This document shows positions 1,065 through 63,452 of a DNA stretch of 64,000 nt, piece by piece. Within the stretch, counting starts at the first letter, position 1. Every line of letters starts with the position of its first letter. The notes below the pieces were generated by a model, which was not told the DNA's origin, made no database searches, and worked only from the letters and a program-made list of their open reading frames with translations. Position numbers and translations under genes: made by a program. Where the stretch lies: positions 34,221,567-34,285,566 of the forward strand of contig OX579636.1 of assembly GCA_951230915.1 (NCBI GenBank). Reading direction: 5' to 3'. The stretch is from Antitrichia curtipendula. Its lineage: Eukaryota > Streptophyta > Bryopsida > Hypnales > Leucodontaceae.

Positions 1065-1068
1065 AGTA

Positions 1069-2548: not shown

Positions 2549-2592
2549 TGAAGATCCAGTAGGCTCTACTATCCGTTTTGTTGATTGATGTA

Positions 2593-14397: not shown

Positions 14398-14523
14398 TAA
14401 ATAATAAATAACAAATATAGTCTAATCTAACGGTTGCAATCTTGATGGACTCTCGATTACAATTTGGGTTGTCATTTTTGGACGACCCAAACTATAGTCA
14501 AGAGTCTGTCGCAAGGCCATCAC

Positions 14524-14667
14524 CATGTAGGCATTTGCTGCCATGTAGGCATTTGCTGCCATGTAGGCATTTGCTGCCATGTAGGCATTTGCTGCCATGT
14601 AGGCATTTGCTGCCATGCAAGCATTTGCTGCGATGCAGGCATTTGCTGTCATGTAGGCATTTGCTGT
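14524..14667. repeat. 18-bp minisatellite, eight copies
   Basis: The unit CATGTAGGCATTTGCTGC is repeated eight times; the first five copies are nearly identical and the last three diverge. Since 18 is divisible by three and the unit has no stop in several frames, it opens long frames on both strands (minus: six-residue MAANAY repeats). I see no evidence that it is translated. Confidence 0.9.
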
Positions 14668-24830: not shown

Positions 24831-24834
24831 TTAA

Positions 24835-25807
24835 CCCCTAAAGGCCCGTTTGTCCCCTCGGGGGACAATTTGGGTCCGGGTAGGTTTCTGTGACCTCAAT
24901 TTGTAGAAAAAAAATTTGGGATTTTTTGAGGTTCTACGGTTCTGCGAGAACCGTAGAATAATTATATATAATTTATAATTTATATAATTTTATATAATTT
25001 TATATTATAGAATAATTTATATAATTTTTATTTCAAATGGTGCCTAGGAGAAAAAAGTTATGCCAAAAATAGAGTTCAATGGGCAATACAAAAAAATCAC
25101 AAAAAATCAAAATAAACTTCTTAAATATTTTTTTTTAGATCTATGCCTTCTGTGTACATTTGAAGCTTTGATTCATTCTATTTGGACTAATAATGAAAAA
25201 GTTATGGACAATCTTAGTTTTTCGGGCAATCTAAGCATCTTCTTGAAAAAATAACTTTTAGGATTCATTTTTTAATGCAATTTTACAATTTTCAGAAAAA
25301 AATTGTTAGACAAGGTTGAATATGCTTGCTAGAATAATCTCACCGTTGGGATTATGGTATTTCAATTTTGTCTTAGAGCTATTAACAATTTAGTTATTCC
25401 TTCAATCTTGAACTACTTCTACTTAACAATTTTTTAATGAGTGAAAATTTAGTGTTTTTTTCTTGAATTTTTTTTCCTAGATTCTCAACTGAAGTATTCA
25501 ACATATAAACTTAGAAAATCAAAATCAGCAATACAAAAAATTTAAGTTAAATAGGTTCAAAGCCCAAAAATCTAGTCAAGCAAGGTGCAAAAAAAAACTT
25601 GTTTTCTTCACTTTGAATGCAAATATCTTGCAATCTATTTGGTCAAAGTTTCTGAAATTTCTTGCATACATTTTCATACTAGTCTAGTATAAGATCCTAT
25701 GATTAGATATGCAAAAAAAAACAATTTTTATAGTTTTTTACTCTTTGCAATAGAAGTGGCAGTTTTGAGTGTGTTTTGATGGAGAAAAGGCCTCAGGGCT
25801 TTAGGGG
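24835..25807. mobile_element. TTAA-flanked element D
   Basis: TTAA at 24831-24834 and 25808-25811. Ends CCCCTAAAGGCCC and, inverted, CCCCTAAAGCCC. The interior contains AAGTTATGGACAAT and ATATCTTGCAATCT, also found in the elements at 30432, 34624 (inverted) and 40685. Non-coding, 973 bases. Confidence 0.85.
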
Positions 25808-26197
25808 TTAAAACACTAATTGCAATTAAGCTCCCAAACTTTGACCTTCTTTTCAACCTAATCCCTTATCCCTACACAAATTTAATTAGAATAGAGTCTC
25901 CCTACTTGCAAAGATACATAATCTAGGTGTCACTTGAACCGGCTTTTTGGAGCCCAACATGGGACACCAACCTTAGAGTGGTTGGAATTATTTCTCTCTA
26001 ATTCTCAAACGTGATTTGAAAACACTACTATGGGGTGTTAGGGGGGTGTTAGGGGACAAATTTCCAAAGCTAGAATCACATGATGTCAATAATGGAAAGA
26101 GATAGGTACATCTCGCCCAAGAAGTCAAGAGGTTTGACACTCCTCATTGGAGGCAGGAGGCACACAGGAGGCAGGAGGCACACAGGAGGCAATTAGG

Positions 26198-26334
26198 GCA
26201 ATGCAATTTCAAGTTCCTACGAGGGGCCTATTACTCAGATCTGGCAATCACAAGTGGACAGACTTGAAAACAAGAGGGAGAGTTGCATGGTTGAAGAGGT
26301 GTACCGTAACACAAATAATGAACTCGGGACTCCC
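26198..26334. repeat. Copy of a ~140-base repeat near the SAM-domain gene
   Basis: It begins GGGCAATGCAATTT and has a middle TGGACAGACTTGAAAACAAGA and an end with GTAACAC. Related copies are at about 27236-27370, 27475-27590 and 27627-27755, three of them in the intron of the neighbouring gene. The copy is cut off at 26335 by the TTAA element. A small GGAGGCAGGAGGCACACA tandem repeat precedes it at 26146-26190. Confidence 0.6.
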
Positions 26335-26338
26335 TTAA

Positions 26339-26743
26339 CCCATTAAGGACCAGTCGACCATTCTGTTGTCGATTTGGGTCTTTGGGGGTTTGTAGAGAGA
26401 GCATGTCAATGAATTTGATGACGTGGCAAAGGGGACGGGTCTGGGAAATTGAGAAGTGAAGAGTTTAGGACAATAACTAGGCCAATCTGAGGTGGCATGT
26501 GGCCAAAGGGTTGAAAAAACCAAGACAACAGGGGCTGAAATTACACCAAGATTTGCTAAAAATTCTTGCTTTACAACCCATCTTTACCAAAAATTTAAAT
26601 GCTAAATCCTATAACATGCACAATACTTCCATCCATACGGTTAGATCTCCGATAGGCACTTGCATTCAAAAATTTTAAAACTGCTCCCAATTGGCCATAC
26701 AAAGGATTGCCCACCCCCCAAATCAACCACGGTCCTTAATGGG
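26339..26743. mobile_element. TTAA-flanked element E (short)
   Basis: TTAA at 26335-26338 and 26744-26747. The 13-base terminal repeat CCCATTAAGGACC is perfect. At 405 bases it is the smallest complete member in the window and is non-coding. It lies just downstream of the SAM-domain gene and may fall in its 3' untranslated region. Confidence 0.85.
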
Positions 26744-26978
26744 TTAACTTGTGATAATTCAAACCTTTCCTGCTCGATTAATATGTCATCTCTACAACAC
26801 TCAAATACACAGGCAGCACATGGTTCAAATTCAATGTAAAGAAAGCGGGACTTGCAACTCACAGCCGTTGGCAACAAAATCCGAAACTTCCGAAGTCAAT
26901 GACCCTGAAAATGTGAAGGAAAGGAAAGGGTGGCTCACCCCATTCAATTCCCTGCTAGATTCAGCACCCGCATGCTCA

Positions 26979-29197
26979 TCACCTACCCTTCAATTGCTGG
27001 ATCAACAACTCCAGCTTCCTTCGATCGCCAAAACTCAGGATCTGAAGCTCATCACGAAGGTCATTGTTCGTCAGCTGCAGAAGCAGCTCTCCGTCAATGT
27101 TATTGTCTGCAAATGTGGCGGCGTACCGTGCAAGCCCTTGCTGTCCCAGCCACTCCATCGTCTCCCCTACGGTCCAGTCCTTCGGCTTCGCTGCAATGGA
27201 TCAAGGGTTCACAATCCCACATTAGTGCGAGATTTGCATTTTGCAATACGAAACTTGAAACTCAAAATGCTAGTATGTTTTACAAGAGAGCCTCAGAATC
27301 GCGCAGGGCTCGAAGTAGAATATAGAAGGAAGAGACTCTTACAGTTGGAGTCACGCACTCTGACACCCCTATTCAATAAACAAGAAATGGGTTCCAAGCA
27401 ACTATGAAGAGACAACACCGCATGTAAGTTAAGGGTGACAGAGTTCAAGATTCATACTCCAAGAATGACGGCGATTTGGGCAATGCAATTTTAAAATTCG
27501 ACCAGAGACTCATAAACGCACAGGGCGGGATTTGGACTGAAACGTCATATTGGAGTGGCTGAAACTATGAAGAGTGATACCCCTATTAGGGAGTGTAAAG
27601 GTTCAAGACTTTATACTCGAGAACGGAAACAATTTCAAGTTTCTACGAGAAGCCTCGTAGTTTGAGACGAGATCACAGATGGCCAGATTTGGAAACAAAA
27701 AGAGAGCTGTGTGGCTGAAATTCATGAACTGTGACACCCTTATTGCAAGAAATCCATAACCAGAAATCCCACCTTGCAACATAACATAACATTCTAGAGC
27801 AGTGTTGTTCGCCCACCCTTTTTTCCTGTAGCTGCCCCCTAATTAGCAATAACTACCCTTGCCCACAATTGTTTGCTGAGGGCCAAGGTTTTCATTCTTG
27901 AATTCGATATGTGAGATGATCTGTGCCAAAGACGATAGAGAATTCAGAGAATCTTGAAGATCATGATTCTTCCTTGAAGAAACAGTTGGACTAAACGAAT
28001 TCGCAGCTCCTTTCATGAATGTTATGAGCCCAGAACTGCATCAATTCTTCGCAACCCTAAACCCTAATCCTGTGTTGAGACTTGTTGGCACGTTTCAAGG
28101 AATTGCGAAAGAGTTTGAAGAGAGCAAGCGAGCTCACCAGGCAAGACCGCAGTGCCGGGGGAAGAAGAGCTTTGAGCCAGCAGCATGTCGAATTCCTCCA
28201 ACTCCTTAAGCCTCATAATGCGTTCCTTCTCCTCCAGACTAACGATCTCTTTAGGTTTTTGAGCTTGCGCCTTTAGCTTCTCCGCTTTCACCACTTCCAT
28301 CACCACTTTCTCATTCTTCACCCTCGCCTCCGCCAACGGCCGGTGGACGGCACTGAGAAGAAACGCGAGGCTGCTTACGACTCCGATTTGCAGGAAAACA
28401 GACAGCCCTCCACTAAACAAGAAAAGCAGCGCGAGCAGACGCGGAACTTCGTAGATAAGCGCGTTCGCGACGAGCGCGGCTCTCGCTTCGCCCGGCAGAC
28501 TCTTTTGCTTACTGGCGAACCTCAACCACAGAAACAAATTGGCGAAGGGGATGAAACTTACGGCGAGCGAGAATCCCATGTCCAGCCACCCAGGCGCGGC
28601 GGCTTTTAGCTTGCGAGTGAGGTTCAATGCGTCTACTTCGCTCTGGCTTTGCTCCAAGGCGTACCACCCGCCCACGCAATTCGCTATCATAATACCCGAG
28701 AGGACAAGATCCGCGACGCCGAAGTAAGCAAGGGAGCCAGGGATGAGTCCTCGCAAGCTCGCTATCCAGCCTACAAGAAACAAACCTTCAAAAGACGCCA
28801 GTCCAAGCGGCAGCGACACTGTCAATTGCGAGAGTGGCTTCTTGTCATCTTTCAATGTCACCTCAAATTCGCCCACGGGCTCCTCACTCTTCTCCTTAAT
28901 CCCAGCTCTTGCAATGTAGAGCTCAAATCCTCGCAATCTTTTGTGTCTCAGCACAATCCTATTGGCTAGGACTAAGGTGCCGCGGAGAGAAGAGCCGAGT
29001 GTCGAGGGTGTTATTATTCTCGCGCGACATTGCTGCTCTGAACGACGAGAACGAATTGCTACGGGTGGGGGATTCTTTGTGCTAATTACACAGAACGCCG
29101 AATATGGCGAATGAGCTCTGGCAGAAGACATTATTGCGACCACCATATCCACACCGAAAACCAAAACAGAGCCCCGAGTGCGCACTTCAAACTTCAC
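26979..29197 (-). CDS. Plastid-type membrane protein with C-terminal SAM domain, two exons
   Basis: Exon 1 is 29197-28138, exon 2 is 27190-26979; a 947-base GT-AG intron (donor CCTG-GTGAGC, acceptor TTGCAG) joins them in phase 1, giving 423 residues. Residues 1-75 are rich in Ser, Arg and Ala and resemble a plastid transit peptide; Met18 or Met23 could be the real start. Four or five hydrophobic segments lie near 127-146, 157-180, 205-226, 240-262 and 264-285. Residues 289-340 are Lys/Glu-rich and probably coiled. Exon 2 encodes a sterile alpha motif domain (WTVGETMEWLGQQGL start, RRKLELLIQQLK end), usually a protein-protein or oligomerisation module. Without the splice the frame would run on to a stop at 28064 with unrelated sequence. 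I do not recognise the membrane part; its job is unknown. Intron and 3' flank are rich in repeats. Confidence 0.8.
27236..27755. repeat. Three degenerate ~140-base repeats inside the intron
   Basis: Copies at about 27236-27370, 27475-27590 and 27627-27755 share GCCTC, AGAGACTC or similar blocks and end in GACACCC(C/T)TATT. They match 26198-26334 in the 3' flank. Identity is low, about 60-70% by eye. Confidence 0.5.
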
Positions 29198-30427
29198 AAT
29201 GTATTAGCTTGCGCTTTTCAATTAGATGTCCTTACATACCTACGGCTGGAATAAGAGTAAGTTAAGAAGGATTTTTCCAGAAGAAATGAAGAGGAAGGAT
29301 CGTGGTCCAAGACCGTGACACCGATATAATGACATGAAGAAAACTTCACTCCCGTGTGTAGAGCTCGCAATGGACTACTTCGGTTCAAATTAATATCAAC
29401 TGTGTTTGTCAATCCCTACACCGTAACCATAGATTGGTGAAGCTGAATGCCGACGACCAAAAGGGTGGAAGGCGATCTGCTACATCTTGCACATCTGAGT
29501 TCTGGTTGACCTCTTTTTCTGAATGACATTGCATCTCGCCACACTGAATGAAATTCTGCTACGTCTCCTTCTAGACCACTGCCACCAGTAGGAGCCTTTC
29601 TATGGTGGATGGCTACAGGCTATAACAGCTTCTGTGGTGTTTAGGGAACCAGTGTCACCTTTGACAACCATGAACCCATGATCCCTTCTGGCTCTTCCTC
29701 TTCGTCAAAAGCTTCCCTGCGTAGTGGCTTCTGCAGGGTAATAGATTGCTATAGGACATGCTTAGGGGTAACAGTTAGATACACCATCAGATCACACAGC
29801 GTTGACAGATTTCTGCAAGTATTCCGAATAGGGCAATCCCCGCCGACAAGATATTTATGTAACTATAATCCTTACTTCCTCCTAGAACGGTCCAACGGAG
29901 GCAAGACTGTTGAGATTAGGAAGATTGAGCACGGTTCAGATTCAGATGAGAATTCAAATCCTCACGCCCTTCGCCAAACATTCAGAGTCTGTGCACTCTG
30001 TGAATATCCCTATGTGGTTGTGAGGAATTGGATAACAGAGGTTCACGTCATCGAAACCCTAATTGATTTTCATCGCAATGCTGCCTCCACTGCAATCAGG
30101 ACATCAAACTCCCGAACGTAACTTCAGTGATTTTGACGAAGGTTGCGGATTTACTTCTTGAAAGAAGAGAGGGCGTCATTCCCTTGAACCCTAAACCCTG
30201 GAACCCTGGAATTTGTTTGAATTTGTTGATTCCGCATTTTCAACGAAGAATACAAATGTAGCCCCAAAGTGTCAAAAAACTCAAATTTGGTCTCTCTGGC
30301 GCATAAATCCTTGCCCGTACACGTCATGAACATGAGGCTAGAGTTGATTTTGATAAATTTGAAAACTCAAAGATTATTCATTTGTTGTCTCAAAATACAT
30401 GCTAAATAAAATAATCAAAATCTTTTT
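29198..30427. other. Intergenic between the SAM-domain gene and element F
   Basis: The first few hundred bases should be the promoter and 5' untranslated region of the minus-strand gene ending at 29197. A 147-codon open frame at 29678-30121 (plus) has no recognisable domain, and I do not call it a gene. Confidence 0.4.
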
Positions 30428-30431
30428 TTAA

Positions 30432-31367
30432 CCCCTAAAAGCCCATTGTCCCTTCGGGGGACAAATGTGTTTTTGGGCAGGTACCTACAGGCTGCAATTT
30501 TCTCCTGATTTTTTGAAACTTTTTTTGGAGGTAGAAAAGCTGATTAGCTACGTGGGAATATAATTTTTTTCACAACCGGTGCCCGGTAACAAAAGTTATG
30601 ACCAAATAAGCTCAAAACAGGGGACGGGGGGCAGCACGGGCAGCAAAAAAAAATTGCACTTTTTTAATTTTTATTTATTTTTAATATTTTTTTCTCATAG
30701 ATTATATTTTTATCTATCTGGAAAGCTTTGATTCATTTCATTTGGATTTGTTATGAGAAAGTTATGGACATTCTTGTTTTTCGGGCAGTTAGAGCATCTT
30801 TTTGAAAAAATAACTTGTAGGATTCATTTCTAAATGCAATTTTTCAAATTTTTCAATTTTTATTTTTTTTCATGGTTTAGTTTACTTGCTAGAACAATCT
30901 CACCATAGGGATTAGTGCATTTTAATTCCATCTAAAATATATGAATACTTTAGATTTTCCTTCTATCTTGTACCTACTTCTCCTTAACAATTTTTTTAAT
31001 AATGAAAATTATGGTTTTTTGATTTGATTTTTTTTTAATTAGACTCTGAACTCAATTCTCCACTATAAAGATTTAAAGCTCAAAACTCTGTAGTGCAAAA
31101 ATTTTAAGTTAAAAATGTTCAAAGTCAAAAAATCCAGTCCCACAATGTGCTGAAAATTTTGTTTTTTTCACTTTAAACGTAGATATCTTGCAATCTGTGC
31201 GGTCAAGAATTCTGAAATTTTTTCCACACATTCTCATACAAGTTAGGTGTAAGATCCTACGGTTAGATGTGCACAAAAAGAAAATTTAGTTTTTTTTTCA
31301 CTCTTTGCTAAAAAAGTGGCAGTTTTGGGTGTTTTTTGGCAGAAAAAAGGCCTTGGGCCTTTAGGGG
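30432..31367. mobile_element. TTAA-flanked element F
   Basis: TTAA at 30428-30431 and 31368-31371. Ends CCCCTAAAAGCCC and, inverted, CCCCTAAAGGCCC. Very close to the element at 40685-41610 through most of its length (shared GGTGCCCGG, GGCAGGTACCTACAGGCTG and AAGTTATGGACATTC). 936 bases, non-coding. Confidence 0.87.
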
Positions 31368-31371
31368 TTAA

Positions 31372-32888
31372 TTGCTAACAAGATTCTACAAAAATTGTGG
31401 TAGTTTAAAGTTCATTCAAGAAGTTTTAGATGTACCAATAATTATTTAATTCTAATGAAGGCGATGCAAGTGACTTCTAATATTGTTTTTAGATTTTTTT
31501 GATAAAAGTTGAAATTAACGTTAATTTTTGGTGAAACAATGAAGAAAATTCACATCAAATGCAAAACACATTCAAATTTATTGAAAACTTTATTAAAAAT
31601 ATACATAATTATAGTGAAAGTAATCATACCGTAGTGTGTATCATGTTTTCATTTCATTCTATTCATAAAAAAATTTAAGGTCATATTTATATGTCTAAAT
31701 TTAAAAAATCCTAATCTTCCTTGTGACACTAATTTATCAAAGTCAAATTGTTTCAAATTAGTTTAGATAAAATGTTCATATATTATACCAATTCCACAAA
31801 AAAAACAAGAGGTAAATTGCAAATATCTCTACCAAAATAAATATGTAATACTTTTGAATGCTTCTTTTTCATGTGATCTTCAGCTAAGTCTTTCATTTGA
31901 TTATTATATAAAAATCTCCATATTATGACAATAGAAGGCTACTTCTATTATATATTCAAATGCCACAATTCTACTAATATAAGAAATGAATCTTTTTAAA
32001 TAATGGGTCAAAGATGGTACTATTATTTTTAATACATTTTGTGCTTTCATTTGCTTACATAACTTTTGAAATTTCAAACCATTGAGCACCAATACTATCT
32101 CTTCCTATCCCTAAAATGTTGCTAGCGCCCAAAAATGGCATTTGGATGGCTTCAAAACAATATACAAAATGATTGCAAATCATTTTTCATCCAAATCTTG
32201 TTGGTAGAGTTGCTTGAATAGAAGTTGCTTAAGATGATGTTGAAAACTGCTTCATTGACATATTTTTGACCTTTTAACACAAGAAGATGCAAAAAAATGG
32301 ATCACAAAATGTGTTATTGTTGGATATTTTGTAGAATTGTTGTTTTTTGCTCTACATCTTAAATTTCTCTGTAGAAATGATATTTTTTTAGTTTGAGCCC
32401 AATTACTAAAATAAAGGTCATATGTTCTAATTTCTATTCCAATTTGAACATTGTAAAATTCCTAAAATTGAATATCTTATTATATATTGAACTTTAGATG
32501 TATTTCCAGTGTCTACTCAAAATTTTTTAGAATGATATATGAAAATTTTATTTGCATTACAATGTACTTCACTACAATATTCACCTATGGTGAAATTTTC
32601 ATGTTTTGGGAGACAATTTCTATTTGATATGATTCTTCTTCATTTTTTTATCAAAAAAGTTCAAAAAGTTCAATTTTGTATGAAAATGAAACTGAAAAAA
32701 ATTCATCTCTAAAAAATAAAACTCATTCACATTCCGTTGCTAAATGGGAATATACAAGGTGAAGGAAAATATGTTTTGCAACAATATAATAATAGATCTA
32801 GAGTTTCATGACTATGGTTGATAGAGATAATAAAATATTATAGCAACACTAATTTTTCTTCTTCTCTATTAGTTTAGACCTTTACAAG
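31372..32888. other. AT-rich DNA with decayed element remains
   Basis: No gene. From about 32106 to 32790 the sequence resembles the interior of the elements at 32893-33657 and 53356-54081 (shared TTTCTATTTGATATGATT and GTCTAAAAAATAAA-like words), but intact TTAA termini are not seen, so it is an eroded copy. Confidence 0.5.
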
Positions 32889-32892
32889 TTAA

Positions 32893-33657
32893 GCCTACGA
32901 CAGTGTGGTCGCCTAGAAGTGTCCAATGGATGATTTTCCAAATCACTTTAGAAACGAAGTGTCCATTTGGATGACTCCACCTAAGATTGTAGGATGGAGG
33001 AAAAAAACATTTCATTCAATTTTTTCTTGAAGTTGCTTGAGTACATTTTTAGTGAATAGTATTGTAATTCTTCTCATTATCATATTGCTAATTTTTCTGA
33101 AGAAAAAGATGCTTTATTTGCAAATCACCGTTGTAATGTATTTTGACCATTTTTTGTTATTTATTCTTGATGTGAATTTTAGCCATAAAGAATATAATTT
33201 TGAATTTGAATCCAACTAATAAAGTAAAGCTTATCAAAAATAGTTTCTACTCCAATTGCAAATTGGAAAAATTCATAAATTTCAATACTTTATATTAATA
33301 TGAACATTTTGGCCTATAACCATGTTTTTTTTATTTTCTAATTTTATAAAGACACAATAACTTTGATTTATATTATGATGATATACACTATAATATATAT
33401 AGTAAAAATTTCATATTTCTTTTAGTATATTTGATATTTGATATGAGTTTTTTCATTTTTTTATTTTAAAAATTCAAAATAATTTCAAATTTTTTCCAAA
33501 AAATTTGAAAAATTTATGAATTTTTTAGTAGACATATGAAATTATCTCTAAAAAATAAAAATAAAACTTCCATGCATATCTAGTTGTTAAATGATAGCAA
33601 ATATAGTGATGGATAGTGAGGCTAAAAATAAGTAGTCATGGACATATTCTTCTAAGA
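32893..33657. mobile_element. TTAA-flanked element L
   Basis: TTAA at 32889-32892 and 33658-33661. The right end, inverted (TCTTAGAAGAATATGTCCATGA), is similar to the right ends of the elements at 53356-54081 and 62454-63452. The left end starts GCCTACGACAGTG. Terminal repeats are poorly kept, so it is an older copy. Non-coding. Confidence 0.55.
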
Positions 33658-33694
33658 TTAACCATCTATTAAATTTAGATGTTTTTTTTGTTAG

Positions 33695-34163
33695 GTTGAT
33701 ATCTCTTGGAATTTGTGTTTCCTTGTTTGTATTCTTGGTATTGTTGGAAAAATCTGTATAAGGAGGGTTGCATGGGCTTTGTTTCATGATGTTTTGACAT
33801 ATGGTGTCAAAGATATTGAATTTTATTTTATTTTATAAATTATAAAGATGGAAAATTATTTTTGTTTTTGTTCTTATTGTGGCACATTGGTCTATACCTT
33901 AAGTGGGGTTGTTTGTTTTGTTTGATACATTGAGACCTTAGAGACTATAAGGCATCTAGTGGCATTATTGGAACCGTTGGAAAGATCTTTCCAAGGAGGG
34001 TTGAAGTGCACAGACTTTGTTTGTAACGTTTGAACAAACGGTCTTTGTACCGTTGGAAAGATCTTTGCAAGGAGGGGGATGCGGACTTTATTTGTGGCGT
34101 TTGAACAAACGGTCTTGGTACCGTTGGAAAGATCTTTGCAAGGGGTGCATGGACTTTGTTTGT
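33695..34163. repeat. Tandem ~71-76-base repeats
   Basis: ACCGTTGGAAAGATCT occurs at 33973, 34049 and 34120, each followed by CAAGGAGGG and GGACTTTRTTTGT. A weaker copy is at 33700-33790, and further weak copies lie at about 35400-35490 and 35625-35730. The element at 34624-35344 splits the series. Confidence 0.75.
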
Positions 34164-34623
34164 TTCAAATTATTTAATTTCAAAGTTTTTATGAATTTAG
34201 AAATTGAATCAGATTACAAATCTTTTATTTTGGAAAAATCATAACTTTTACATTGCATGTCCAAATGCCACAAAACAAAACCCTTGCACTCCTTCATATA
34301 AAAAAACTTTCTATTTGTGCCAATTTTGTGGCGTTTGCACTCATGGTGTGAAAAGTTATTTTTATTAAAAAACTGTTATAAATTATCTTCTATTTTGAAA
34401 AAAACATAAATTTCACATGGTATGTCCAATTGCCATAAAAACAAAGCCCTTACACTCATTTGTGCATAGAGTTTTTTATTTGTTTCAAGAATGCAACCTC
34501 TCACATTACCGTGCGAAAGATATTGAATTTCCAATTTCTAATGAATTAAAAAATTAGGAAATGATTTTGATTTTGATTTTGGTTGTAGCAACGACAAAGG
34601 GCACACTTATGTAAATCCATTAA

Positions 34624-35344
34624 TCCCTAAAGGGCCAAGGCATTTCTTCCATTAAAAGACACTCAAAATTGCCATTTCAATTGCAAAGACAAAAAAATTT
34701 AGAAATTGTTTGTTTTGCACATCCAGTTTTTATGTTGAATAGTTGAGTTGAAAATACAAGAAACAAAAATTAGGAGAAAAACAATTAATTTTCACTCATT
34801 AAAAAATTGCTTAATAAAACTAGGTTCAAGATTGAAGGAAACACTATATTGTTAATAGCTTTAAGATGGAATTGAAACACAATAATCCCAATGGTTAGAT
34901 TGTTTGAACATGCAAACTAAACGCTATCTAACAAAAAAAGTTATAAAAATTGCAATAAAAAATGAGTTCTATAAGTTATTTTATTAAAAAGATGCTTAGA
35001 TTGCCCAAAAAACTAAGATTGTGCATAACTTTCTCATCACTAGTCCAAATAGAATGAATCAAAGCTTTACATGTAGAAAAGTATAATCTTTTAGGGAAAT
35101 TTTTTTCTTAAAATCATTTTGACTTTTTATAATTTTTTTGTGTTGCCCGCCAAACTCTGGTTTTGCTTATTGTGCCATAACTTTTGCTTCCGGACACCGA
35201 TTGAAATAAAAATTGTATATACACAAAGCTCTCTTACAACTGCACATCCTCAAAAAGTTTCAAAAAGTTTCACTAAAAATTGAGGTTGTAGAAACCTGCC
35301 CGGACCCAAATTGTCCGTCAAGGATATAGACGGTCCTTTAGGGG
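34624..35344. mobile_element. TTAA-flanked element G
   Basis: TTAA at 34620-34623 and 35345-35348. Ends TCCCTAAAGGGCC and, inverted, CCCCTAAAGGACC. Its interior is the inverse of elements D, F and H, with shared strings around ATAACTTTCTCAT and TAACTTTTGCTTCCGGACACCG. 721 bases, non-coding; placed within the tandem-repeat series of 33.7-35.7 kb. Confidence 0.82.
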
Positions 35345-35799
35345 TTAAGTTAGGATGTTTGTTTTCTTTTGTTTGTTACATTGAGATTTCCATGATCGTG
35401 TGTCCTTCAATTCCTTTCTTGGTACCGTCAAAAAGACCTTGGTGAGGAAGGATGCACGGGCTTTATTTCTTGGCGTTTGGACCTACAATGTGGAATTTTT
35501 GAAATTTTGAGTAATTTTTGAATTAAAATTAGAAAATTACTTTTCTTTGGGTGTGGCAATAATACAAGGTACACTATTACATACATCAAATTAGGTATTT
35601 TATTTTTTTTGTTATGATGAAATCTCCAAAACTATGCGTCTCTTGGTCACATTCTTGGTATCATAGGAAAATTCTATGCGAAGAGGGGTGCACGAACTTT
35701 GTTTCGTAACATTCCAACTCATGGCAAAAAAGATATTGAATTTCAAAGTTTATATATATTATAAATTAAAAAATTACCATTACTTTTTATTTTGTTATA

Positions 35800-36281
35800 T
35801 TGCATGTGACAAGGCATCATACCAGTAGTTTTTATAAACCCATAAATGTCGCCGAGGACGTTCTCTGGCCGATGAATGATAAATAATCTTTCCGTGCAAG
35901 ACAGAAATACAACTATTCATCCTCCCAATTTTGTATGGAAAGGGAAGGTCTTCTACAATAGTTTGTCTTCCAATGAGTGTTTTTTTCATTTTTATAAGCC
36001 AACAATTCACACGGTATCCAAACAGACGATTTCCATGGTGACCAGCTCGTCGTTTAACCTTTAAGCGATGGACTTATAACTGTGGAAATCATTTGTTTTG
36101 TCACTGTGTGACTTGTTGGCTTATAAAAATGAAAAAGCACTCATTGGAAGACAAGCTATTGTAGAAGGTCCCTTTCCACACAAAATTGGAAGGATGAATA
36201 GTTGCACTTCTGTCCTGCAAGGAGATATTCTTTGTCATTCATCGACTAGAAAACCGTCCTTGGCGGCGTTTATGGGTTGAG
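35800..36281. repeat. Foldback element with ~170-200-base arms
   Basis: Arms at about 35800-36012 and 36112-36281 are inverted copies joined by a 100-base loop. Shared words include GGAAGACAA, CACTCATTGGAAGAC (inverted in the left arm) and AGGATGAATAGTTG. Both arms keep an open frame with related peptides (KIGRMNSC), suggesting an inverted duplication of coding-derived DNA. Confidence 0.72.
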
Positions 36282-36338
36282 GATTAAATTCTATAAGTAA
36301 AAATAAATTCTGATGAAAACTCATGGCACATTGGAGTA

Positions 36339-36580
36339 AGCTAGGGAGGATTGATCCATGTATTGCCCCACGTTTTACCCCTGCAAAAAACGCTTAAATT
36401 TCTTATTTGTTGCATATGGTAAATTTTTCAAATTTCAAATTTATATTCTCAATCAGATGCCCCAAATGAGCTAGGAGATGCAAAGAAATACAAAATTCTA
36501 TAAGCGACACAAAATAGAGGGCAATTTTTACTGATTTACCCTTTGATGGGGACAATACATGGGTCAATCCTCCCTAACCC
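36339..36580. mobile_element. MITE with 9-base target duplication
   Basis: The inner ends TAGGGAGGATTGATCCATG and, inverted, TAGGGAGGATTGACCCATG agree at all but one base. Flanks ATTGGAGTA (36330-36338) and ACTGGAGTA (36581-36589) match at eight of nine. A nine-base duplication fits Mutator-like elements; eight would fit hAT. 242 bases, non-coding. Confidence 0.72.
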
Positions 36581-36907
36581 ACTGGAGTACCCGATGAGTC
36601 AGAACCACCGTAGCTACAGCTACGAGGCGAGGCGCGGTGAGGGTGCCCGAGACAAGTGTGCAGCCAACTGTCAGTCCACCTCACTCCGATCCAGATATTT
36701 CATCGGGCTGGGAATCATCCCCTTCCCCGAATGCCTGCAGACGAAGAAAAAAAAAAAGACTTGGAAGCGGTCGTTGCGTGCGCAGAATCGACGGACCCTT
36801 TGTGTACACTGTACCTCCACAACTGAAAAACGGAAGGAGCCAAAACTGAACAGAATGAGAGCCACGTTGATGGGTTTCGCCACCGGATAACTTCGAGCTC
36901 CGTCACC

Positions 36908-37206
36908 AATGGCTCCAAAAGAAAAGAAGAAGAAATATACTGTAGAATTGATACTCATAAAATGTAAAACAAAAAGGAAAGGAAAGTTCCGTCATGAAGG
37001 TTCACGAATGGCTCCAAAAGAAAAGAAAAGAAAAGAAAAGAAAAGAAATACTGTAGAATATGATACTCATAAAATATAAAAACAAAAAGGAAAAGGAAAG
37101 CGAAGGTTCACGAATGGCTCCAAAAGAAGAAGAAGAAATACTGTCAGTAGAATATGATACTCATAAAAATATAAAAACAGAAAGGGAAAGGAAAGCTCCG
37201 TCGTGA
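36908..37206. repeat. Three tandem ~100-base repeats
   Basis: Each copy starts AATGGCTCCAAAAGAA, at 36908, 37007 and 37113, and contains TACTGTAGAAT and GATACTCATAAAA. Copies differ in the length of an AAAGA run. Non-coding. Confidence 0.88.
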
Positions 37207-37446
37207 GTGAATGAAATATTCCCTTCAGGAACTAATACCATATACTATTTGGTTGTTGCAATACAGTACGTTCCTACTCGCTTTGGAGGGAGGATCTCAG
37301 TCCCTGCAAAAAACTGGAAAGGCAGATCCAGTTGTCACCCTGGGGGGAGGGGGTATTGATGTCGCTCTGTTGTTGCAAGTCAAAGACCACCGAATAGTTT
37401 GCCCCGCTTGCGGCTGGGGCTCTTTGTTCCTCTTTTCTTGCAGTAA

Positions 37447-38727
37447 GAGCATCGCCACGGCTGCTCGCCAAGCGGCCTAACACGCTGACTGAGCGAGCCC
37501 TGGCTTCATTTCCTCCCCCACGGCTGACGCGCCAAACGGGGAAAACAACCCGGCCGCGCCAGAATTTTAGGGAGACACGGGGAAGTAGTGGAGCTTCAGC
37601 GCGGCTCGCCAAAGGCTCTGACTACATTTCTCAACCCAGTTTCGAGGCACTGACAGTCCTTCTCACCAATGTTCGAGGCACATCCCCCTTTTACCCTCAA
37701 ACTTTTCTCACAAGTAATTTTAACCTCAAATAAGTTTCCTTTACCTGTGTGAAAAAACTGAAAAGAAGGCATTTCCCAACTAGAGTAAAGTAACCTTTAT
37801 TTTGAATCTAGATAATTAGGAGAAATGCACATTCACCTTAGATGCATTGCAAGAGGTAAGAGAAGCTTACTATATACACATGGGGTGGTAGGAGGTAGAA
37901 CAAACAATGTGGGATAAGTAAATTAGATGTAGTAGGAGCTCCACCATTCATAGTTTTTTCCAAAGTAGAAATTGTGTTAGAATTACAATTTCAGACCTCA
38001 TTTAGGCATAGTAGATTAACTTTTTCCAAAACACTTTGAACTCATAAAAGATGTGAAATCAAGATAAATTTCATCTCTAAATATCCATTTGAGATTTCAA
38101 GTCTCTAGTCAAAAGTTATTCACAAATTTCTACTATGCATTTCTACAAATGTAAAAAAAATTTCCCTTCTAATCCTCTTTTGAAATTTGTCCATAACTTT
38201 TGATTGGAGTCTTTAAATCACAAACGGATTTTTGGAGGTGAAAAATGTCTTGATTTCACATCTTTTATGAGTTCAAAGTTTTTTGAAAAAAGTTAATCTA
38301 CTATGCCTAAATGAGGTCTGAAATTGTGATTCTAACACAATTCCTACTTTGGAAAAAACTATGACTATGAGTGGTGGAGCTCCTACTACATCTAATTTAC
38401 TTATTCCACATTGTTTGTTCTACCTCCTACCACCCTATGTGTATATATTGAGCATCTCTATTGATTCTCAGAATCAAACTAAGTTGGAAATGCCTCTGAA
38501 ACAATGAGATCTAGATCTCAATGAACTATTGAAAAGTTTTTTGAGTTCAATTTTAAAACCATCAAAATCTTTTGCATTATATATCTGGCACTCATTACAA
38601 ATTTTTTTGCCCCTGTATGGTGCGCAGCCGTGGGGAAGAGGAAGAGTGGTGAAGCCCCACTCTTCAAATCCACTCGCCAAAATCCCTCTTGGCGCCCCTG
38701 TTTGAGGAGTCAGGCGTGGGGATGCTC
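37447..38727. mobile_element. GAGCATC-terminus element, 1.28 kb
   Basis: The left end GAGCATCGCCACGGCTG and inverted right end GAGCATCCCCACGCCTG agree at 15 of 17. TAA flanks both sides (37444-37446 and 38728-38730), a TWA-type duplication. It belongs with the elements at 8660-13256 and 12401-12887 by terminus. A foldback element (37871-38448) sits inside it. No transposase. Confidence 0.75.
37871..38448. repeat. Foldback element nested in the GAGCATC element
   Basis: Arms at about 37871-38095 and 38225-38448 are inverted copies at about 90% identity, beginning TATATACACATGGGGTGG. Both include TTTAGGCATAGTAGATTAA (or its inverse) and CTACATCTAATTTACTTA. The outer arm sequence is related to the foldback at 30-1064. 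Confidence 0.82.
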
Positions 38728-38729
38728 TA

Positions 38730-39457
38730 AGGTAGGAGGCTGTTAAAGCAACCCTTTAACAGCTGATTGCATTTTCAGGGAAGCTGAACTCCTTGAAACA
38801 ATTTTCAGTAAATTTTACGAGGAAGGAAAATGGAATTGGCATCTAATCCAAGTTTGTTTCATATTTTTTGGACCTTCGTGGAATTAGTTACAAGTTTTTG
38901 AAGTTGAAACGCAGTGGTTTCTTAAAGCAACCCCCTCCTGAAATGTACAATGTTGGTACATTGAAGAAAGTAAAATGTACCTCTGTGTTAGAGGTCGCTT
39001 TTAGAGCCAGGTCGCTTTTACAAACACCTACCTTAAAAGGCTCCTTCACTTGTGTCAAAAAGAAAAGAAAAGACCACAAAATATGGGAGCATCCGCAACA
39101 CAAACGGTTATCCGAAACCAGAATCGGCATGAAGAACACTCACTCACACAACGAGCTTAAGGTAATACCATCTAAAATCACACAAATAAGCAATTCAAAA
39201 TGCTTCCTATTATTATATTGGAAAATTTTTTTGAAGGGAGGGGGGGGGCGAGAGGCTGTTGGTAGTGAAAAGGGGATTTTAGATTCTCTTAGAATGCATT
39301 TTTGGACACTATATGAATAATCTATGAATTTTTAAAGTACTGAAAATAGGTATTCCTAAGAGCAATCATAGACTCCCATGAACAGTGGGAGTACATTTTA
39401 GGCAAAAATCTATAGTGTGCAAGTTTAGGAAGCATATGCTTTTAGGTGTAGTTACCT
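38730..39457. mobile_element. TA-flanked element with AGGTA termini (candidate)
   Basis: TA at 38728-38729 and 39458-39459. Left end AGGTAGGAGGCTGTTAAAGC, inverted right end AGGTAACTACACCTAAAAGC. The right third resembles 61900-62040, and the middle resembles 41715-41870. The terminal repeats are imperfect, so the limits are tentative. Confidence 0.5.
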
Positions 39458-39658
39458 TACAAGTAATTACACTCTATATGGTAGATCCACCCATACTCGA
39501 CCACTTAAGCGATTTCGTGCATGTTTTGGAGCAGTAGAAGGCAATGTAAATTTATTGCCCTTTTGAAAGATAGAAATGACAGGCATTGCCAATTTTTTGT
39601 GATTTTTTTCTTTAAATTCAAATTACTATTAATTTTGGAACTTGAAAGTTGGCGTCAA

Positions 39659-40526
39659 CCCATGCCCAATATATAGAGTCTTCCATAGGCTCTATCTTTT
39701 AACATATGAAATTGTAGGATCTTGTAGTATGCTAGCTTGAGGACATGTGGTAAGAATTTCAGAAAATTCCACCACATGGATTGCAAGATGTAAGCATTCA
39801 AATTCATTGAAATCAATATTCTGGCCTGCAAAAATCTAGGCAGTTGCACTTCACAAGGTTACATTTGTATAAAAAAAATGTTCCAAATGGTGGTACTTCT
39901 TAGGATTCATTCTTCAACACAAGTTGTCTACATGCTTGAAGATTTTTACATCATTTGAAATTGTACAACATATAAGAAAAAAATAGTAAGTAGAAAGAAG
40001 TAGAGAATGACTCAAATTACAAAATTGTTAACAATTTATTTATGGAATTGAAAAGTGCCAATCTCAATGTTGCAATGTTGTAGGAAACAATCTACATCCA
40101 ATGGTTTTATTTTTTTCCACGAATATTGAAAATTGAGTAAAATAAAGGATTTCAAAGTTTATTTTAGAGTAGAGAATCCATAACTGCCCACAAACTAAAA
40201 CTCCTCATAACTTTTGACTTGTTGATCAAAATGGAATGATTCAAAACTTTCCATGGATATATAAATCTAGAAAATCAATTTCAAATTTTGTTTCTAATAA
40301 AAGTGATTTAAAAAAATTTGCCCGGATTGCCTGTCTTGGGAAAAAAGTAACATATTAGGCCATAACTTTTTACTCACATTTCCAAATCTCATTAAATTTA
40401 GTATATATGAAAGATATTCCTTGTCCCTGTCTTCTATTAAAATGTCAGCCTAAAATATGAAAATCTCTAGTCATACATACTTGCCCAAAACTTCCAGGTT
40501 GCCAAACAATGCATGTTGGTCAGGGG
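39659..40526. mobile_element. TTAA-type element I, left target base changed
   Basis: TCAA (39655-39658) on the left and TTAA (40527-40530) on the right. Ends CCCATGCCCAA and, inverted, CCCCTGACCAA. The interior has the family words CATAACTTTTGACTTG and GATTCAAAACTTTCCATGG. 868 bases, non-coding. Confidence 0.6.
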
Positions 40527-40684
40527 TTAAAGTTAATTTATGTATTTGTAGTGACACTAATTGCACTTTTGCTAATAGGCTACATAAATGTAGTTTGCTG
40601 ATTTTATAGGATTGGTTCATTCTTTGAGATTGTGAGCTAGTGAGAATGTGAGGAGGGAAAGGAGGTTCATAAAGCTTTCATTAA

Positions 40685-41610
40685 CCCCTAAAAGACCATT
40701 GTCCTTTCAGGGGACAAATGAGATTTTGGGCAGGTACCTACAGGCTGAATTTTTGTTGTGATTTTTTGAATTTTTTTTTGAAAATAGAAAAACTGATCAT
40801 CTTTGTGAAAATATAATTTTTTTCACAATCGGTGCCCGGGAACAACAGTTATGATCAAATAAGCTCAAAACAGGGGATGGGGGCAGTTTGGGCAGAAAAA
40901 AAAATTTGCAAAAATTTGAATTATTTTTTAAGATATTTTTTTCTCATAGAATATACTTTTTCTATCTGGAAAGCTTTGATTCATTTCATTTGGATTTGTT
41001 ATGAGAAAGTTATGGACATTCTTGTTTTTGGGATAGTTAGAGCATCTTCTTGAAAAAAATAACTTCTAGGATTCATTTCTGAATGCAATTTTTCAAATTT
41101 TTCAAATTTTTTTTTTATGATTTATTTTACTTGCTAAAACAATCTCACCATTGGAATTAGTGCATTTTAATTCCATCTAAAATATATGAATATTTTAGAT
41201 TTTCCTTCTATCTTGTACCTACTTCTACTTAACAATTTTTTTAAGAATGATAATGAACTTTTTTTGAACTTTTTTTTCTTCTTCTAGACTCTCAAATCAA
41301 TTCTCTACTATAAAGATTTAAATCTCAAAATGCTGTAGTGCAAAAACTTTAAGTTAAAAATGTTTGAAGTCAAAAAACGTAGTCCCGCAATTTGCTGAAA
41401 AACTTGTTTTTTTCATTTTAAATGCAGATATCTTGCAATCTGTGTGGCCAAAAATTCTAAAAAAAATTCCACACATTTATATACTAGTTAGGTGTAAGAT
41501 ACTATAGTTAGATGTGCAAAAAAAATATTTTTCAATTTTTTTTACTCTTTGCTATAGAAATGGCAATTTTTAGTGTTTTTTGGCTTAAAAAGGCCTTGGT
41601 CCTTAAAGGG
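40685..41610. mobile_element. TTAA-flanked element H
   Basis: TTAA at 40681-40684 and 41611-41614. Ends CCCCTAAAAGACCATTG and, inverted, CCCTTTAAGGACCAAGG. Nearly collinear with the element at 30432-31367, at perhaps 85-90% identity by eye, so the two are recent relatives. Non-coding. Confidence 0.87.
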
Positions 41611-41624
41611 TTAAAGATCCGAAA

Positions 41625-44600: not shown

Positions 44601-45453
44601 AAAATTGGTAGATGTTATTAGAATTGTTTCTTTAAGAGCAGGTACATATTGGTTTAGGAGATGTATACAATGTGAGCACCTCATCAAGTGGCACTTTTAG
44701 GCACCTGACACATTTGGGTGTCCCTACTTTAAACTTACCAAATTATGTAGTTTTGACCATCAATTTACACATACTAGGCTAGAAAGAAGAATGAATTAGA
44801 CCCCTTCCTAATTATAGATGGTTGATTCTATGCTTGGAAATATTAGGAAGAATTTGAAGTCTTCAAGAAGCCTAAGATATCCATAAAGTGCAAATGGATT
44901 TTTGATTGACTTGAACAACATTTATTTACATTTTTGGATTATTTTGACATTGAAACTTTGAATGTAGATTGTGTGAGCAAATTACCATTAGATCCTAATT
45001 CACTATAATATGCTAAAAGATCTTGAGAATGCACTACTAATGTTAAGAAAACTCCTCCCAATCCAAAAAAGTAAAATGAAACAAATTCTAAGGTTTAGAA
45101 CTTGAAAATGACAAAAAGAATGTGCTGAATATAGGCCTATTTAAAAAAAATGGTTTTACATCGTGGAGACTTCCCAAAGGAATAAAGAGGCCGTATCTAC
45201 TTCCCAAACAAAAAATTACTACTCAATTGGGAGAATCTAAAGCTCCCATCACCAAAGTTAATGAGATTTGCTCAATTCCATACCATCATGCCAAATCTTG
45301 TTAGAACTGACCACTCACTATTCCTCAATTGCCTTGTCCAAGTCCGCTACAACATACCTACCATGTCAATTTGACTACAACATAGTAGCAAAATGCCTTC
45401 ATATGGTTTATGATGTACTACGGTGATAAATTTAATATTCCAAGACATTCAAC
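41625..45453. other. Gene-free stretch with strand-skewed AT-rich DNA
   Basis: From about 42350 to 43850 the plus strand is poor in C and rich in G and T, giving A/C-rich open frames on the minus strand (for example 43155-43616). This could be a retroelement decayed by C-to-T change, but I recognise no domain. A decayed Stowaway end is near 44314 and a right end of the 2593-type element near 44712-44732. Confidence 0.4.
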
Positions 45454-50049: not shown

Positions 50050-50387
50050 GTACCAAGGTTTTTGTGAACAATTCCATTGTTTTCTTTTTGGGGGGTGTGT
50101 GTGTGTTTTTCCCTGTTTGGTGTGTAGCTTCTTCAGGCAATTGGTTTCTTCATTCTTGGCAAGTTCCATTTGTGGTTGTTTTGTAGGTTCCTTGTTTTGT
50201 AGACACACTTGAATAGGCATTTGGAGAGGTCCCAATTTGGGGGATCCATACTGAGGTCCGACCGTATTTATTATTTTTTCATACATGGATCATTCCGGAA
50301 TGCGTTGTGATCCAATCCAGAATTGTGAGAACGAATGAACGGCATATTTTCTGCCTCTCTTTCAACTGATGGAAATCTTGGGATATA

Positions 50388-50654
50388 AGGTAGGTACACC
50401 CAAAACCGCCACTTTTTGCTACTGAGCCTATTATTAGACTGGTCAAATTTTCATATGTTCTTGTAGGCAAGTGAAAGGAGGTTCCAACGCACCAAAGAAC
50501 ATGACATTTGGATACTGTATGCAAAAGTTATTAAGGAACAAAGTTTGGTTCTAAAAGCGTTTCTTCCACGTAGGTACAGAACTGATTTTTTGGAGATGTA
50601 CACATAGTATAGATGGCGGTTCAAGGTCAGTGGCACATTTGGGTGTACCTACCT
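50388..50654. mobile_element. TA-flanked mariner-like element B, short relative of A
   Basis: Ends AGGTAGGTACACCCAAA on both sides, inverted and identical, with TA at 50386-50387 and 50655-50656. It matches element A (2593-3838) minus the nested TTAA element, so the two diverged before that insertion. 267 bases, non-coding, just 340 bases after the glucanase stop. Confidence 0.9.
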
Positions 50655-50659
50655 TAAGC

Positions 50660-53355: not shown

Positions 53356-54081
53356 CCTTGGAATGCCACACACGCCATTCTATAGCATTTGGATGACAAT
53401 CTAATGTGTGGGAAAGAATTTGAAAGTATTTTTTCATCCAATTTTTTCTTGCTGACCTTTCATGTTGGGTTATGAAGAGTATCCAATTGACTTTGCAATC
53501 TTGCTAGCTTGTCTTTATGTAAATGAGAAGTAAGTAAAAAAAAATTGATTGCAAAATATGTTATTTTTTTGTATTTTGGAAAGTTGTTGCTCTGTGTTGT
53601 AAATCTGAAATTTCTCCACAAAAATTATATTTCTTGAGTTTGAAGGTCATCTACTTTAGTTTTTACTCCACTTTGAATTTTGAAAAAATTTCTATTATTG
53701 AATATTTTATTGCAATTTGAACTTTACATGTATTTTCAGTGTCTATTGAATTCTAATTATAGAATGACATGGAAATTAAGTTCACATTGTGATGTTTTTC
53801 ATTGTAATATATACACATGGGGAAATTTTCTCACTTTTTGAAATAATTTTCTATTTGATGTGATTTTTCTTCACTTTCTCTTCGAAAATTCTCAAAAAAA
53901 TCAATTTTCCACAAAAAAATCTAAATTTTTTGTGAAATAAAGAAGACATGTAATTTTATGTCTAAAAAATAAACATAAAAACTTTCATATATATATATAT
54001 ATACAGTTGCAAAATGGCAGCAAACTGAGCCATGAACAGTGAAGCATGAAAGCAATGGTCATAGGTCCGTCCTTTTAAGGG
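53356..54081. mobile_element. TTAA-flanked element J
   Basis: TTAA at 53352-53355 and 54082-54085. Left end CCTTGGAATG, inverted right end CCCTTAAAAGGAC. Interior resembles 32106-32790 and 32893-33657. It lies 470 bases downstream of the stop of the DUF21 transporter gene. Non-coding; the terminal repeats are weak. Confidence 0.65.
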
Positions 54082-61599: not shown

Positions 61600-61816
61600 A
61601 TCTTTACGATCTAAATGTGATACTAAATCTTTCAATCCATGTGGTCAAAGTTTTTGAAAAAAATTCCACACATTCCCACAGCAATCTAGTAACAAATTTG
61701 TACAAATTAATTTTGAAAAAAAGAAAACTTTTACTTTACATTTTTTCTCACTATCCTAAAAGGTGGAAATTTTTAAATAATTTTTGTCCTTGAAACAAGC
61801 CTCAATCCTTTAGGGG
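61600..61816. mobile_element. Right part of a TTAA-type element
   Basis: The right end AATCCTTTAGGGG is followed by TTAA (61817-61820). The interior matches the right third of the element at 30432-31367 (ATCTTTCAATCCATGTGGTCAAAG region). No matching left end was found, so it is truncated or decayed. Confidence 0.6.
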
Positions 61817-62453: not shown

Positions 62454-63452
62454 ACCTTGAAAAGACATGCCTATGACCATTTTTCTAAACTTCAAGTCCT
62501 TTTTTCTATATATTCCCATTTTGCATCTAAACATGAATTAAAGTTTTTAAAGTTTTTTTTTAGAGATGTAATTATGTGTCTTCTATAAGTCTTGAAAACT
62601 TGAAAACTTGTTGTGGAAACTTGAAATTATTGTTAATTTTTGAATGAAAAAAAAATGAAAAAAAAATCTTAAAATACAAAGTATGATTAAGAAAATTTGA
62701 AATTCTCTTTGTGGGTATATTGTATAGTGGAGAACAATATTATGCAATAATTTTTTTGTATCATTCTAATATTAGACTAACAACATTCAAATTGCATTAA
62801 TAATTTGAGTTTTAGAAATTTTTCTAATTTTTCTAATTTGACTAGAAACAAGACTTGATAAGTTTCAAATTGTTAGTTGAAAATAAGAGCAAGGAACAAA
62901 AAATTGCCAAAATACTCTACATGGTGATGCATGGATTTGTCATTTTCTTATGATTGTAAGAAAGTAAAAGAAAATGTCATAAGAAGGGAATATCTAACAC
63001 ATTATATTCAAGAAACTCCTCCCCTTTTTCACTCCAATCAATGGAAAATAATATTTTTTTCATACTTGAAGCCTCCTTCTAATAGACAATAGTTAGTCAA
63101 AAAGCATCTCATTATTAATAGACATTATTCATTTCTAAATTTTTCCTAAAAGTCTTTTATTAGAGGCTTGTAGTCCTTAGCAATGGTATTAGCTAGGGTT
63201 ATCCTTGAAATGTCTAAGAGTAAATTTTTTTATCCTTTACATAACATTGTATAACTAGGTAATGGTCCTCCCATATATTGGGAAGGTATTGTACCATGTT
63301 AACTCTCGGAATGATGGCGTTGAGAACCATAAGCGTCCTATAGATGACTTCATTGTTTGTTGTTGAAACAAAGAATATAACTTATCTATTGGTTCAATAA
63401 TCAAAACATTTTGGTAAATACCTTGGTCGTGGAAGGTTGTGTCCTTCAAGGG
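62454..63452. mobile_element. TTAA-flanked element K
   Basis: TTAA at 62450-62453 and 63453-63456. Ends ACCTTGAAAAGACATG and, inverted, CCCTTGAAGGACAC. The left part is the inverse of the right part of 53356-54081 (ATGACCATT, TTTTGCATCT, TAGAGATGTAATTATGTGTCTT). 999 bases, non-coding. Confidence 0.72.

What the first reader, a model, noticed from the sequence alone, without database searches (positions are those of the whole stretch)
24831..41614. Family of TTAA-flanked, CCC-ended elements in a plant genome
Complete or near-complete copies lie at 2837-3804, 16796-17782, 24835-25807, 26339-26743, 30432-31367, 32893-33657, 34624-35344, 39659-40526, 40685-41610, 53356-54081 and 62454-63452. Nearly all have TTAA on both sides, and most have inverted ends starting CCC or CCCC. 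TTAA duplication with a CCC start is established for piggyBac; Kolobok also uses TTAA. Neither is commonly described from land plants. At least three sub-families exist (CCCTAGACC/CCTCTCACC, CCCCTAAAGG, CCCTTAAAAGG), which argues for long activity.
Basis: partly seen in the sequence, partly recalled or inferred. Interest (0 to 1): 0.88.

Follow-up and report, generated by a model that had tools for sequence, protein, structure and literature searches.

The report
Recent piggyBac transposons in land plant
The repeated TTAA-flanked elements in this plant window look like short copies moved by piggyBac transposons, jumping genes known mostly from animals, and the same plant genome carries full-length piggyBac elements with the same ends, at least one of which was copied very recently.

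Summary
One (32893-33657) is decayed; a further right end lies at 61816. The elements are piggyBac, not Kolobok. The window's own 400-Mb genome has at least 116 piggyBac transposase (PF13843) matches over cut-off. The CCCTAGACC family has exactly the ends of a 4,864-bp element with an open 970-codon transposase frame. The CCCCTAAAGG family matches a 6,982-bp transposase element in its ends and for some distance inside. Sites without the insertion show a single TTAA, or TCAA/CTAA. Four end types number 103 to 13,503 exact matches genome-wide against 0 to 10 for reversed patterns. Two 5,310-bp transposase elements on different chromosomes are 99.83% identical with unrelated flanks, so movement was very recent. 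Published reviews already name plants among piggyBac hosts and a fern repeat table lists PiggyBac, so this is a new member of a known kind; abundance and youth in a land plant are the surprise. Species unidentified; activity inferred, not assayed.

The parts
2837..3804 (+). Family A non-autonomous piggyBac element (968 bp), ends CCCTAGACCGCCC, TTAA at 2833-2836 and 3805-3808; sits inside a TA-flanked repeat whose copy at 50382-50656 lacks the insertion
   Evidence: ends identical over 13 nt to autonomous L029
16796..17782 (+). Family A sub-family copy (987 bp), ends CCTCTCACCGCCC / CCCCTCACCACTC
   Evidence: (79% to 2837-3775)
24835..25807 (+). Family B non-autonomous element (973 bp), ends CCCCTAAAGGCCC / CCCCTAAAGCCCT
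   Evidence: 3' part matches autonomous element in L058, 71% over 167 columns, E 5e-12
26339..26743 (.). Family D non-autonomous element (405 bp), ends CCCATTAAGGACC on both sides
   Evidence: 327 exact ends genome-wide, many pairs about 396-410 bp apart
30432..31367 (+). Family B element (936 bp), ends CCCCTAAAAGCCC / CCCCTAAAGGCCC
   Evidence: (85% to 40671-41614)
32893..33657 (+). Decayed family C relative (TTAA on both sides but no CCC ends)
   Evidence: 67-68% to 53657-53997 and 62776-62517
34624..35344 (-). Family B element (721 bp), ends TCCCTAAAGGGCC / CCCCTAAAGGACC
   Evidence: its end at 35344 equals the left end of the autonomous element in L082/L083
39659..40526 (-). Diverged member of the family B group, TCAA instead of TTAA on the left
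   Evidence: 72% over 199 bp to the 5' end of the autonomous element in L082, E 1e-26
40685..41610 (+). Family B element (926 bp), ends CCCCTAAAAGACC / CCCTTTAAGGACC
   Evidence: first 57 bp match the autonomous 5' end at 76%, E 2e-4
53356..54081 (+). Family C element (726 bp), right end CCCTTAAAAGGAC, left end decayed (CCTTGGAATGCCA)
   Evidence: 103 exact TTAACCCTTAAAAGG genome-wide against 1
62454..63452 (-). Family C relative (999 bp), ends ACCTTGAAAAGAC / CCCTTGAAGGACA
   Evidence: 53864-54085 against 62662-62450, 68%
61627..61816 (+).
50382..50656 (+). Copy of the repeat that family A element 2837-3804 entered, without the insertion: GGCGGTTCAAGGTCAG against GGCGGTTTAA[element]TTAAGGTCAG
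   Evidence: joined flanks 89% identical across the junction

Best explanation
The elements are non-autonomous (MITE-like) members of several piggyBac families. A piggyBac transposase made by full-length elements elsewhere in the same genome recognises the CCC(C/T)(T/A)-A--G-C ends, cuts the element out and pastes it into TTAA, which is left on both sides. Shown here: the ends, the TTAA duplication against sites without the insertion, the transposase elements with the same ends in the same genome, their conserved DDD motif, and near-identical copies at unrelated sites. Inferred from the known piggyBac mechanism: that the enzyme works by cut-and-paste with seamless excision, that it mobilises these short copies in trans, and that some source elements still work.
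For: At least 116 PF13843 matches over cut-off, 907 candidates of which 116 were scored. Family A: L029 element 834-5697, 4,864 bp, ends CCCTAGACCGCCCAAG on both sides, open frame of 970 codons, PF13843 E 1.4e-70, solved piggyBac transposase 6x67 E 3.7e-26 and piggyBat 9c0f E 6.2e-22; a second such element on contig C6. Family B: elements on C1 (6,982 bp) and C5 (7,208 bp) share left end CCCCTAAAGGACCAGCC and right end CCCCTAAAGTTCCTTC, open frame of 939 codons, PF13843 E 1.5e-77, and match family B copies beyond the ends. Catalytic aspartates invariant in the 8 aligned transposases (D635, D714, D825, D828 of L029). Sites without insertion: 2837 against 50382; L044 against L007 and L045, single TTAA; L052 against family A copies. 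Recent movement: two 5,310-bp copies, 9 mismatches, no gaps, unrelated flanks. Between sub-families dN/dS 0.067 or dS saturated, between near-copies dS about 0.01.
Against: Family A shares little beyond the ends with its proposed source. No full-length source was found for CCCTTAAAAGG or CCCATTAAGGACC; nearest ends match 9-10 and 11 of 13. The second copy of the 2837 host repeat (44506) is too diverged to show a clean site, and L043 and L008 give TGAA and TTAG at the junction. No expression or transposition assay. 4 of 20 windows downstream of a transposase showed no CCC end and L057 showed no ends.
Confidence: 0.96

Rival explanations
1. Kolobok elements: another superfamily that duplicates TTAA.
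For: TTAA duplication is shared (PMC9587614, passage).
Against: The elements found with the same ends carry PF13843. I did not search the genome for a Kolobok enzyme.
Confidence: 0.01
2. piggyBac origin, but extinct: all copies are fossils of an old invasion and no enzyme works now.
For: Family B copies in the window are 70-85% alike; family C is decayed; 4 of the 20 best transposase matches fetched as loci have stops inside the domain.
Against: Two complete copies differ at 9 of 5,310 positions; other pairs have dS about 0.01; 16 of the 20 best have no stop inside the domain.
Confidence: 0.2
3. The transposase sequences come from a contaminant (an associated animal, fungus or alga), not from the plant.
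For: piggyBac is best known from animals; the assembly has 303 contigs and is unnamed.
Against: The listed matches lie mainly on the ten largest contigs seen (25-56 Mb), among them C4, which holds this window with its plant genes; short elements with the same ends are spread over the same contigs.
Confidence: 0.01

Closest known systems
piggyBac of Trichoplusia ni (transposase structure 6x67)
   Same: TTAA target duplication, CCC ends, DDE_Tnp_1_7 domain with the same aspartates, cysteine-rich C-terminus
   Different: Elements of 4.9-7.2 kb against 2,472 bp and frames of 778-1,245 codons in five of the elements read against 594 aa (T. ni values from PMC10140906, passage); about 28-30% identity by eye in the local alignment
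MITEs of piggyBac families in animals (for example bats and insects)
   Same: Short copies that keep the ends and the TTAA
   Different: Here in a land plant; one end type alone has 13,503 exact matches in 400 Mb
PiggyBac entries in the Ceratopteris fern repeat table (PMC6890710)
   Same: A land plant with repeats labelled PiggyBac: 1,230 copies, 122 kb (passage)
   Different: Label from a repeat table only; I saw no ends, TTAA sites or transposase described in the passage
Kolobok
   Same: TTAA duplication
   Different: 5'-RR ends, different transposase (PMC9587614, passage)

Membership tests
piggyBac superfamily | TTAA target-site duplication | tested here: met
   10 of 11 window copies TTAA on both sides; sites without insertion single TTAA/TCAA/CTAA
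piggyBac superfamily | Terminal inverted repeats beginning CC(C), about 13-16 bp | tested here: met
   24 representative ends near transposases, CCC 24 of 24 (ends were sought by CC, so partly by construction); positions not selected: A7 24 of 24, G10 23 of 24, C12 24 of 24
piggyBac superfamily | DDE_Tnp_1_7 (PF13843) transposase inside elements with these ends | tested here: met
   both ends found for 10 of 12 transposase loci followed up
piggyBac superfamily | Catalytic aspartates | tested here: met
   invariant D635, D714, D825, D828 in 8 of 8; aligned to 6x67
piggyBac superfamily | Seamless excision restoring one TTAA | not testable with these tools
   Needs an excision assay or resequenced individuals
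Kolobok superfamily | 5'-RR / YY-3' ends | tested here: not met
Kolobok superfamily | Kolobok transposase | not tested
   No search made
Sola3 (TTAA duplication recalled, from no call) | Sola transposase in elements with these ends | not tested
   No search made; the elements read carry PF13843 only

The most novel reading that the evidence does not exclude
Seed-free land plants host their own long-lived radiation of piggyBac: several deep transposase clades with enlarged N-termini, held under purifying selection, still moving today, and feeding more than ten thousand short copies in one 400-Mb genome.
Probability: 0.5. Interest if true: 0.75.

Novelty: new member of a known kind. Interest (0 to 1): 0.62.

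Why it matters
piggyBac is studied and used as an animal element. A land plant with many intact-looking transposase genes and near-identical full-length copies would give native plant enzymes that leave no scar, a test case for how piggyBac and its short copies build a plant genome, and a reason to look again at other mosses, ferns and lycophytes, where repeat surveys may file such elements as unknown.

Tried and rejected
Kolobok: rejected on ends and on the enzyme found. Chance TTAA pairs: rejected. Longer pairs of TTAACCCCTAAARG ends taken first as possible sources (L052-L055) held no transposase; the source was found instead from transposase loci. L057 gave no ends, L049 only a right end. 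Protein search: 4 relatives among 3,936 candidates in 5.8 billion proteins, best a 581-aa metagenome protein at 62% over 77% of the query; the collection names no organism, so it does not identify the plant. Pfam tests for the kind of plant: dynein heavy-chain domain in 5 places, EPF 6 matches; the reading (motile sperm, stomatal peptides, hence a seed-free land plant) rests on my own knowledge; YABBY was asked once and not answered. Degenerate 42-bp motif: the model was built by hand from copies in the window, so its 17 hits at E below 0.01 (best hit in the reversed control E 6.4) are partly circular. Papers: 10 of 10 searches used. No paper held piggyBac with TTAA and gymnosperm or the six terms, and none held five of the six terms; listings were judged by title and abstract start, several lists being cut. 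I saw passages only of PMC6890710, PMC5791352, PMC10619864 (where the word is 'piggybacking'), PMC9587614, PMC10794571, PMC10140906, PMC4438587, PMC10045372 and PMC8086355; the 2017 superfamily survey I looked for is not held.
Full report
The observation. I re-read all 11 intervals. Ten have TTAA on both sides; 39659-40526 has TCAA on its left. CCC stands at both ends in six, at one end in four and at neither in one, 32893-33657. A blind scan for TTAA-bounded inverted ends found six of them, plus one cross-pair and one unrelated hit, against 0-3 hits in each of 30 Markov-1 sequences; the 4-mer AATT gave a similar rate of hits (15 on 822 sites against 8 on 363), which I read as coming largely from long inverted repeats, so the strength lies in the shared CC-type ends and not in the bare count. 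Self-comparison sorts the copies into families A (2837, 16796), B (24835, 30432, 40685, 34624 reverse, 39659 reverse and diverged, and a right end at 61816), C (53356, 62454 reverse, 32893, all decayed) and D (26339).

Genome context. The window lies at G000:C4:34221567-34285566 in a 400-Mb assembly of 303 contigs. Exact end patterns against the same pattern read backwards: TTAACCCTAGACC 387 v 9, TTAACCCCTAAARG 13,503 v 10, TTAACCCATTAAGGACC 327 v 0, TTAACCCTTAAAAGG 103 v 1. A looser pattern drawn from the ends near transposases, TTAACCCYWNANNGNC, gives 23,816 v 166. In the lists shown, opposite ends often stand about 963 bp (first pattern), 915-940 bp (second) or 396-410 bp (third) apart. Roughly, 13,503 ends would be some 6,700 copies of about 0.93 kb if they pair up, near 6 Mb; that is my estimate, not a count.

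TTAA is a target duplication. Element 2837-3804 lies in a repeat whose copy at 50382-50656 has no insertion: GGCGGTTTAA[element]TTAAGGTCAG against GGCGGTTCAAGGTCAG, joined flanks 89% identical over 284 columns. A more diverged copy at 44506 also aligns across the point but shows no clear site. Copy L044 of family A entered a family B element: GGCAATTTAA[element]TTAAGCATC against GGCAATTTAAGCATC in L007 and L045, with CTAA or TAGA in the other copies shown. The B-type element L052:92-1014 entered a family A-like copy; joined flanks align across the point with 24 places, some of them the same copy fetched twice, and eight that I displayed show TCAA (seven) or TTAA (one), with a 10-base gap two bases left of the junction. 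Two weaker cases, L043 and L008, show TGAA and TTAG. For the 19 full-length family A copies fetched by pattern, TTAA on both sides is by construction and is no test.

The transposase. PF13843, the piggyBac transposase domain, matches at 116 places over the cut-off; the first look had 907 candidates, of which 116 were scored, so this is a lower bound; none of 14 control genomes had a match. Of the 20 best, fetched as loci, 16 have no stop inside the domain. The pair of CCCTAGACC ends that stood 4.9 kb apart encloses an element of 4,864 bp (L029:834-5697) with ends CCCTAGACCGCCCAAG on both sides and an open frame of 970 codons at 1786-4698; it matches PF13843 at E 1.4e-70 and the solved piggyBac and piggyBat transposases at E 3.7e-26 and 6.2e-22. 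A second element on C6 has the same left end and the right end CCCTAGACTGCCCATG. For family B, transposase loci on C1 and C5 both begin CCCCTAAAGGACCAGCC and end CCCCTAAAGTTCCTTC, 6,982 and 7,208 bp by my coordinates, the C1 copy with an open frame of 939 codons, PF13843 E 1.5e-77. Family B copies match this element beyond the ends: 24835 at its 3' part (71%, E 5e-12), 40685 over the first 57 bp (76%, E 2e-4), 39659 over 199 bp (72%, E 1e-26), L052 over 205 bp (79%, E 1e-44). Family A shares little beyond its ends with L029.

More sources. Both ends were found for 10 of 12 transposase loci followed up: L029, L050 (5,505 bp), L051 and L084 (5,310 bp each), L056 (5,307 bp), L059 (5,491 bp, frame broken in three), the two B-type sources, the second A-type source, and C2 (L080 with L061, about 5.6 kb); L049 gave one end and L057 none. 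Of 20 windows taken downstream of further transposase matches, 16 show a CCC end at TTAA. Across 24 representative ends CCC is 24 of 24, which is partly by selection, but A at position 7 (24), G at 10 (23) and C at 12 (24) were not selected. The catalytic aspartates are invariant in the eight aligned transposases. A tree of 24 domain sequences, 22 distinct loci, shows several deep clades with near-identical pairs (one quick tree, no rooting beyond midpoint).

Age and activity. Twenty family A copies, one of them the window's and two of them one insertion seen twice in an inverted duplication, are 92.9% alike on average, 87.6-100%. Between transposase sub-families dN/dS is 0.067 in the two comparisons that could be computed and dS is saturated in the others; between near-copies dS is about 0.01 and dN/dS 0.4-1.1. 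That is what elements do that were kept working over long times and then copied recently. The 5,310-bp elements L051 (C1) and L084 (C3) differ at 9 positions with no gap and sit in unrelated flanks, each with TTAA on both sides. Movement was therefore very recent; that it goes on is inferred.

What plant. The window holds a GH17 glucanase with X8 domain and a polyprenyl synthase. The genome has dynein heavy-chain domains in 5 places and 6 EPF matches. From my own knowledge, axonemal dyneins are absent from flowering plants and conifers and EPF peptides belong to land plants, so this is a seed-free land plant; I could not name it.

How it compares with what is known. Kolobok shares TTAA but has 5'-RR ends (PMC9587614, passage); piggyBac shares 4-bp duplications and CC..GG ends with IS1380 (PMC10045372, passage). 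Plants are named among piggyBac hosts in PMC10140906 and PMC8086355 (passages), PiggyBac is in a table of superfamilies found in every group studied in PMC4438587 (passage), and a fern repeat table lists 1,230 PiggyBac copies (PMC6890710, passage). So the kind is known and its presence in plants is not new. In my ten searches I saw no description of intact piggyBac elements with their short copies in a land plant; most subscription papers are not in that library and I opened nine of the papers listed. The verdict is a new member of a known kind, unusual for its host, its numbers and its youth.

Noticed in passing
window 10146-11861 (-): Open frame of 571 codons with HTH_psq and DDE_1 domains, a pogo/Tigger-like transposase; no clear inverted ends found around it.
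   Followed up: partly
window 2590-3840, 50380-50665, 44490-44740: A TA-flanked repeat with inverted ends AGGTAGGTACACCC; at 15584-15604 the flanking sequence of the first copy appears without it.
   Followed up: partly
window 2900, 3086, 3636, 16860, 25206, 31183, 34240, 35024, 35176, 40206, 41014 and others: A degenerate motif of about 42 bp (ATAACTTTTGCATCCGATGTCCAAATGCAATAAAAC) recurs inside elements of families A and B and also outside them; 17 hits at E below 0.01, with a model built from ten of these copies. It might be a binding site or a shared ancestral repeat.
   Followed up: partly
window 37859-38459 and 35837-36278: Long near-perfect palindromes (609 columns at 85%, 447 at 81%), perhaps fold-back elements.
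   Followed up: no
L034 and L035 (C1:20395200-20403000): The same family A insertion with the same flanks in opposite orientation about 6 kb apart, so an inverted segmental duplication.
   Followed up: no
L029, L051 and P0001, N-terminal part: Long N-terminal extension before the transposase domain with a conserved acidic stretch (WT-DS-D--W---Y-DF-GN-SS--NSDW), also in a metagenome protein.
   Followed up: no
window 51796-52319 and 14523-14675: Tandem repeats, the second inside an open frame.
   Followed up: no
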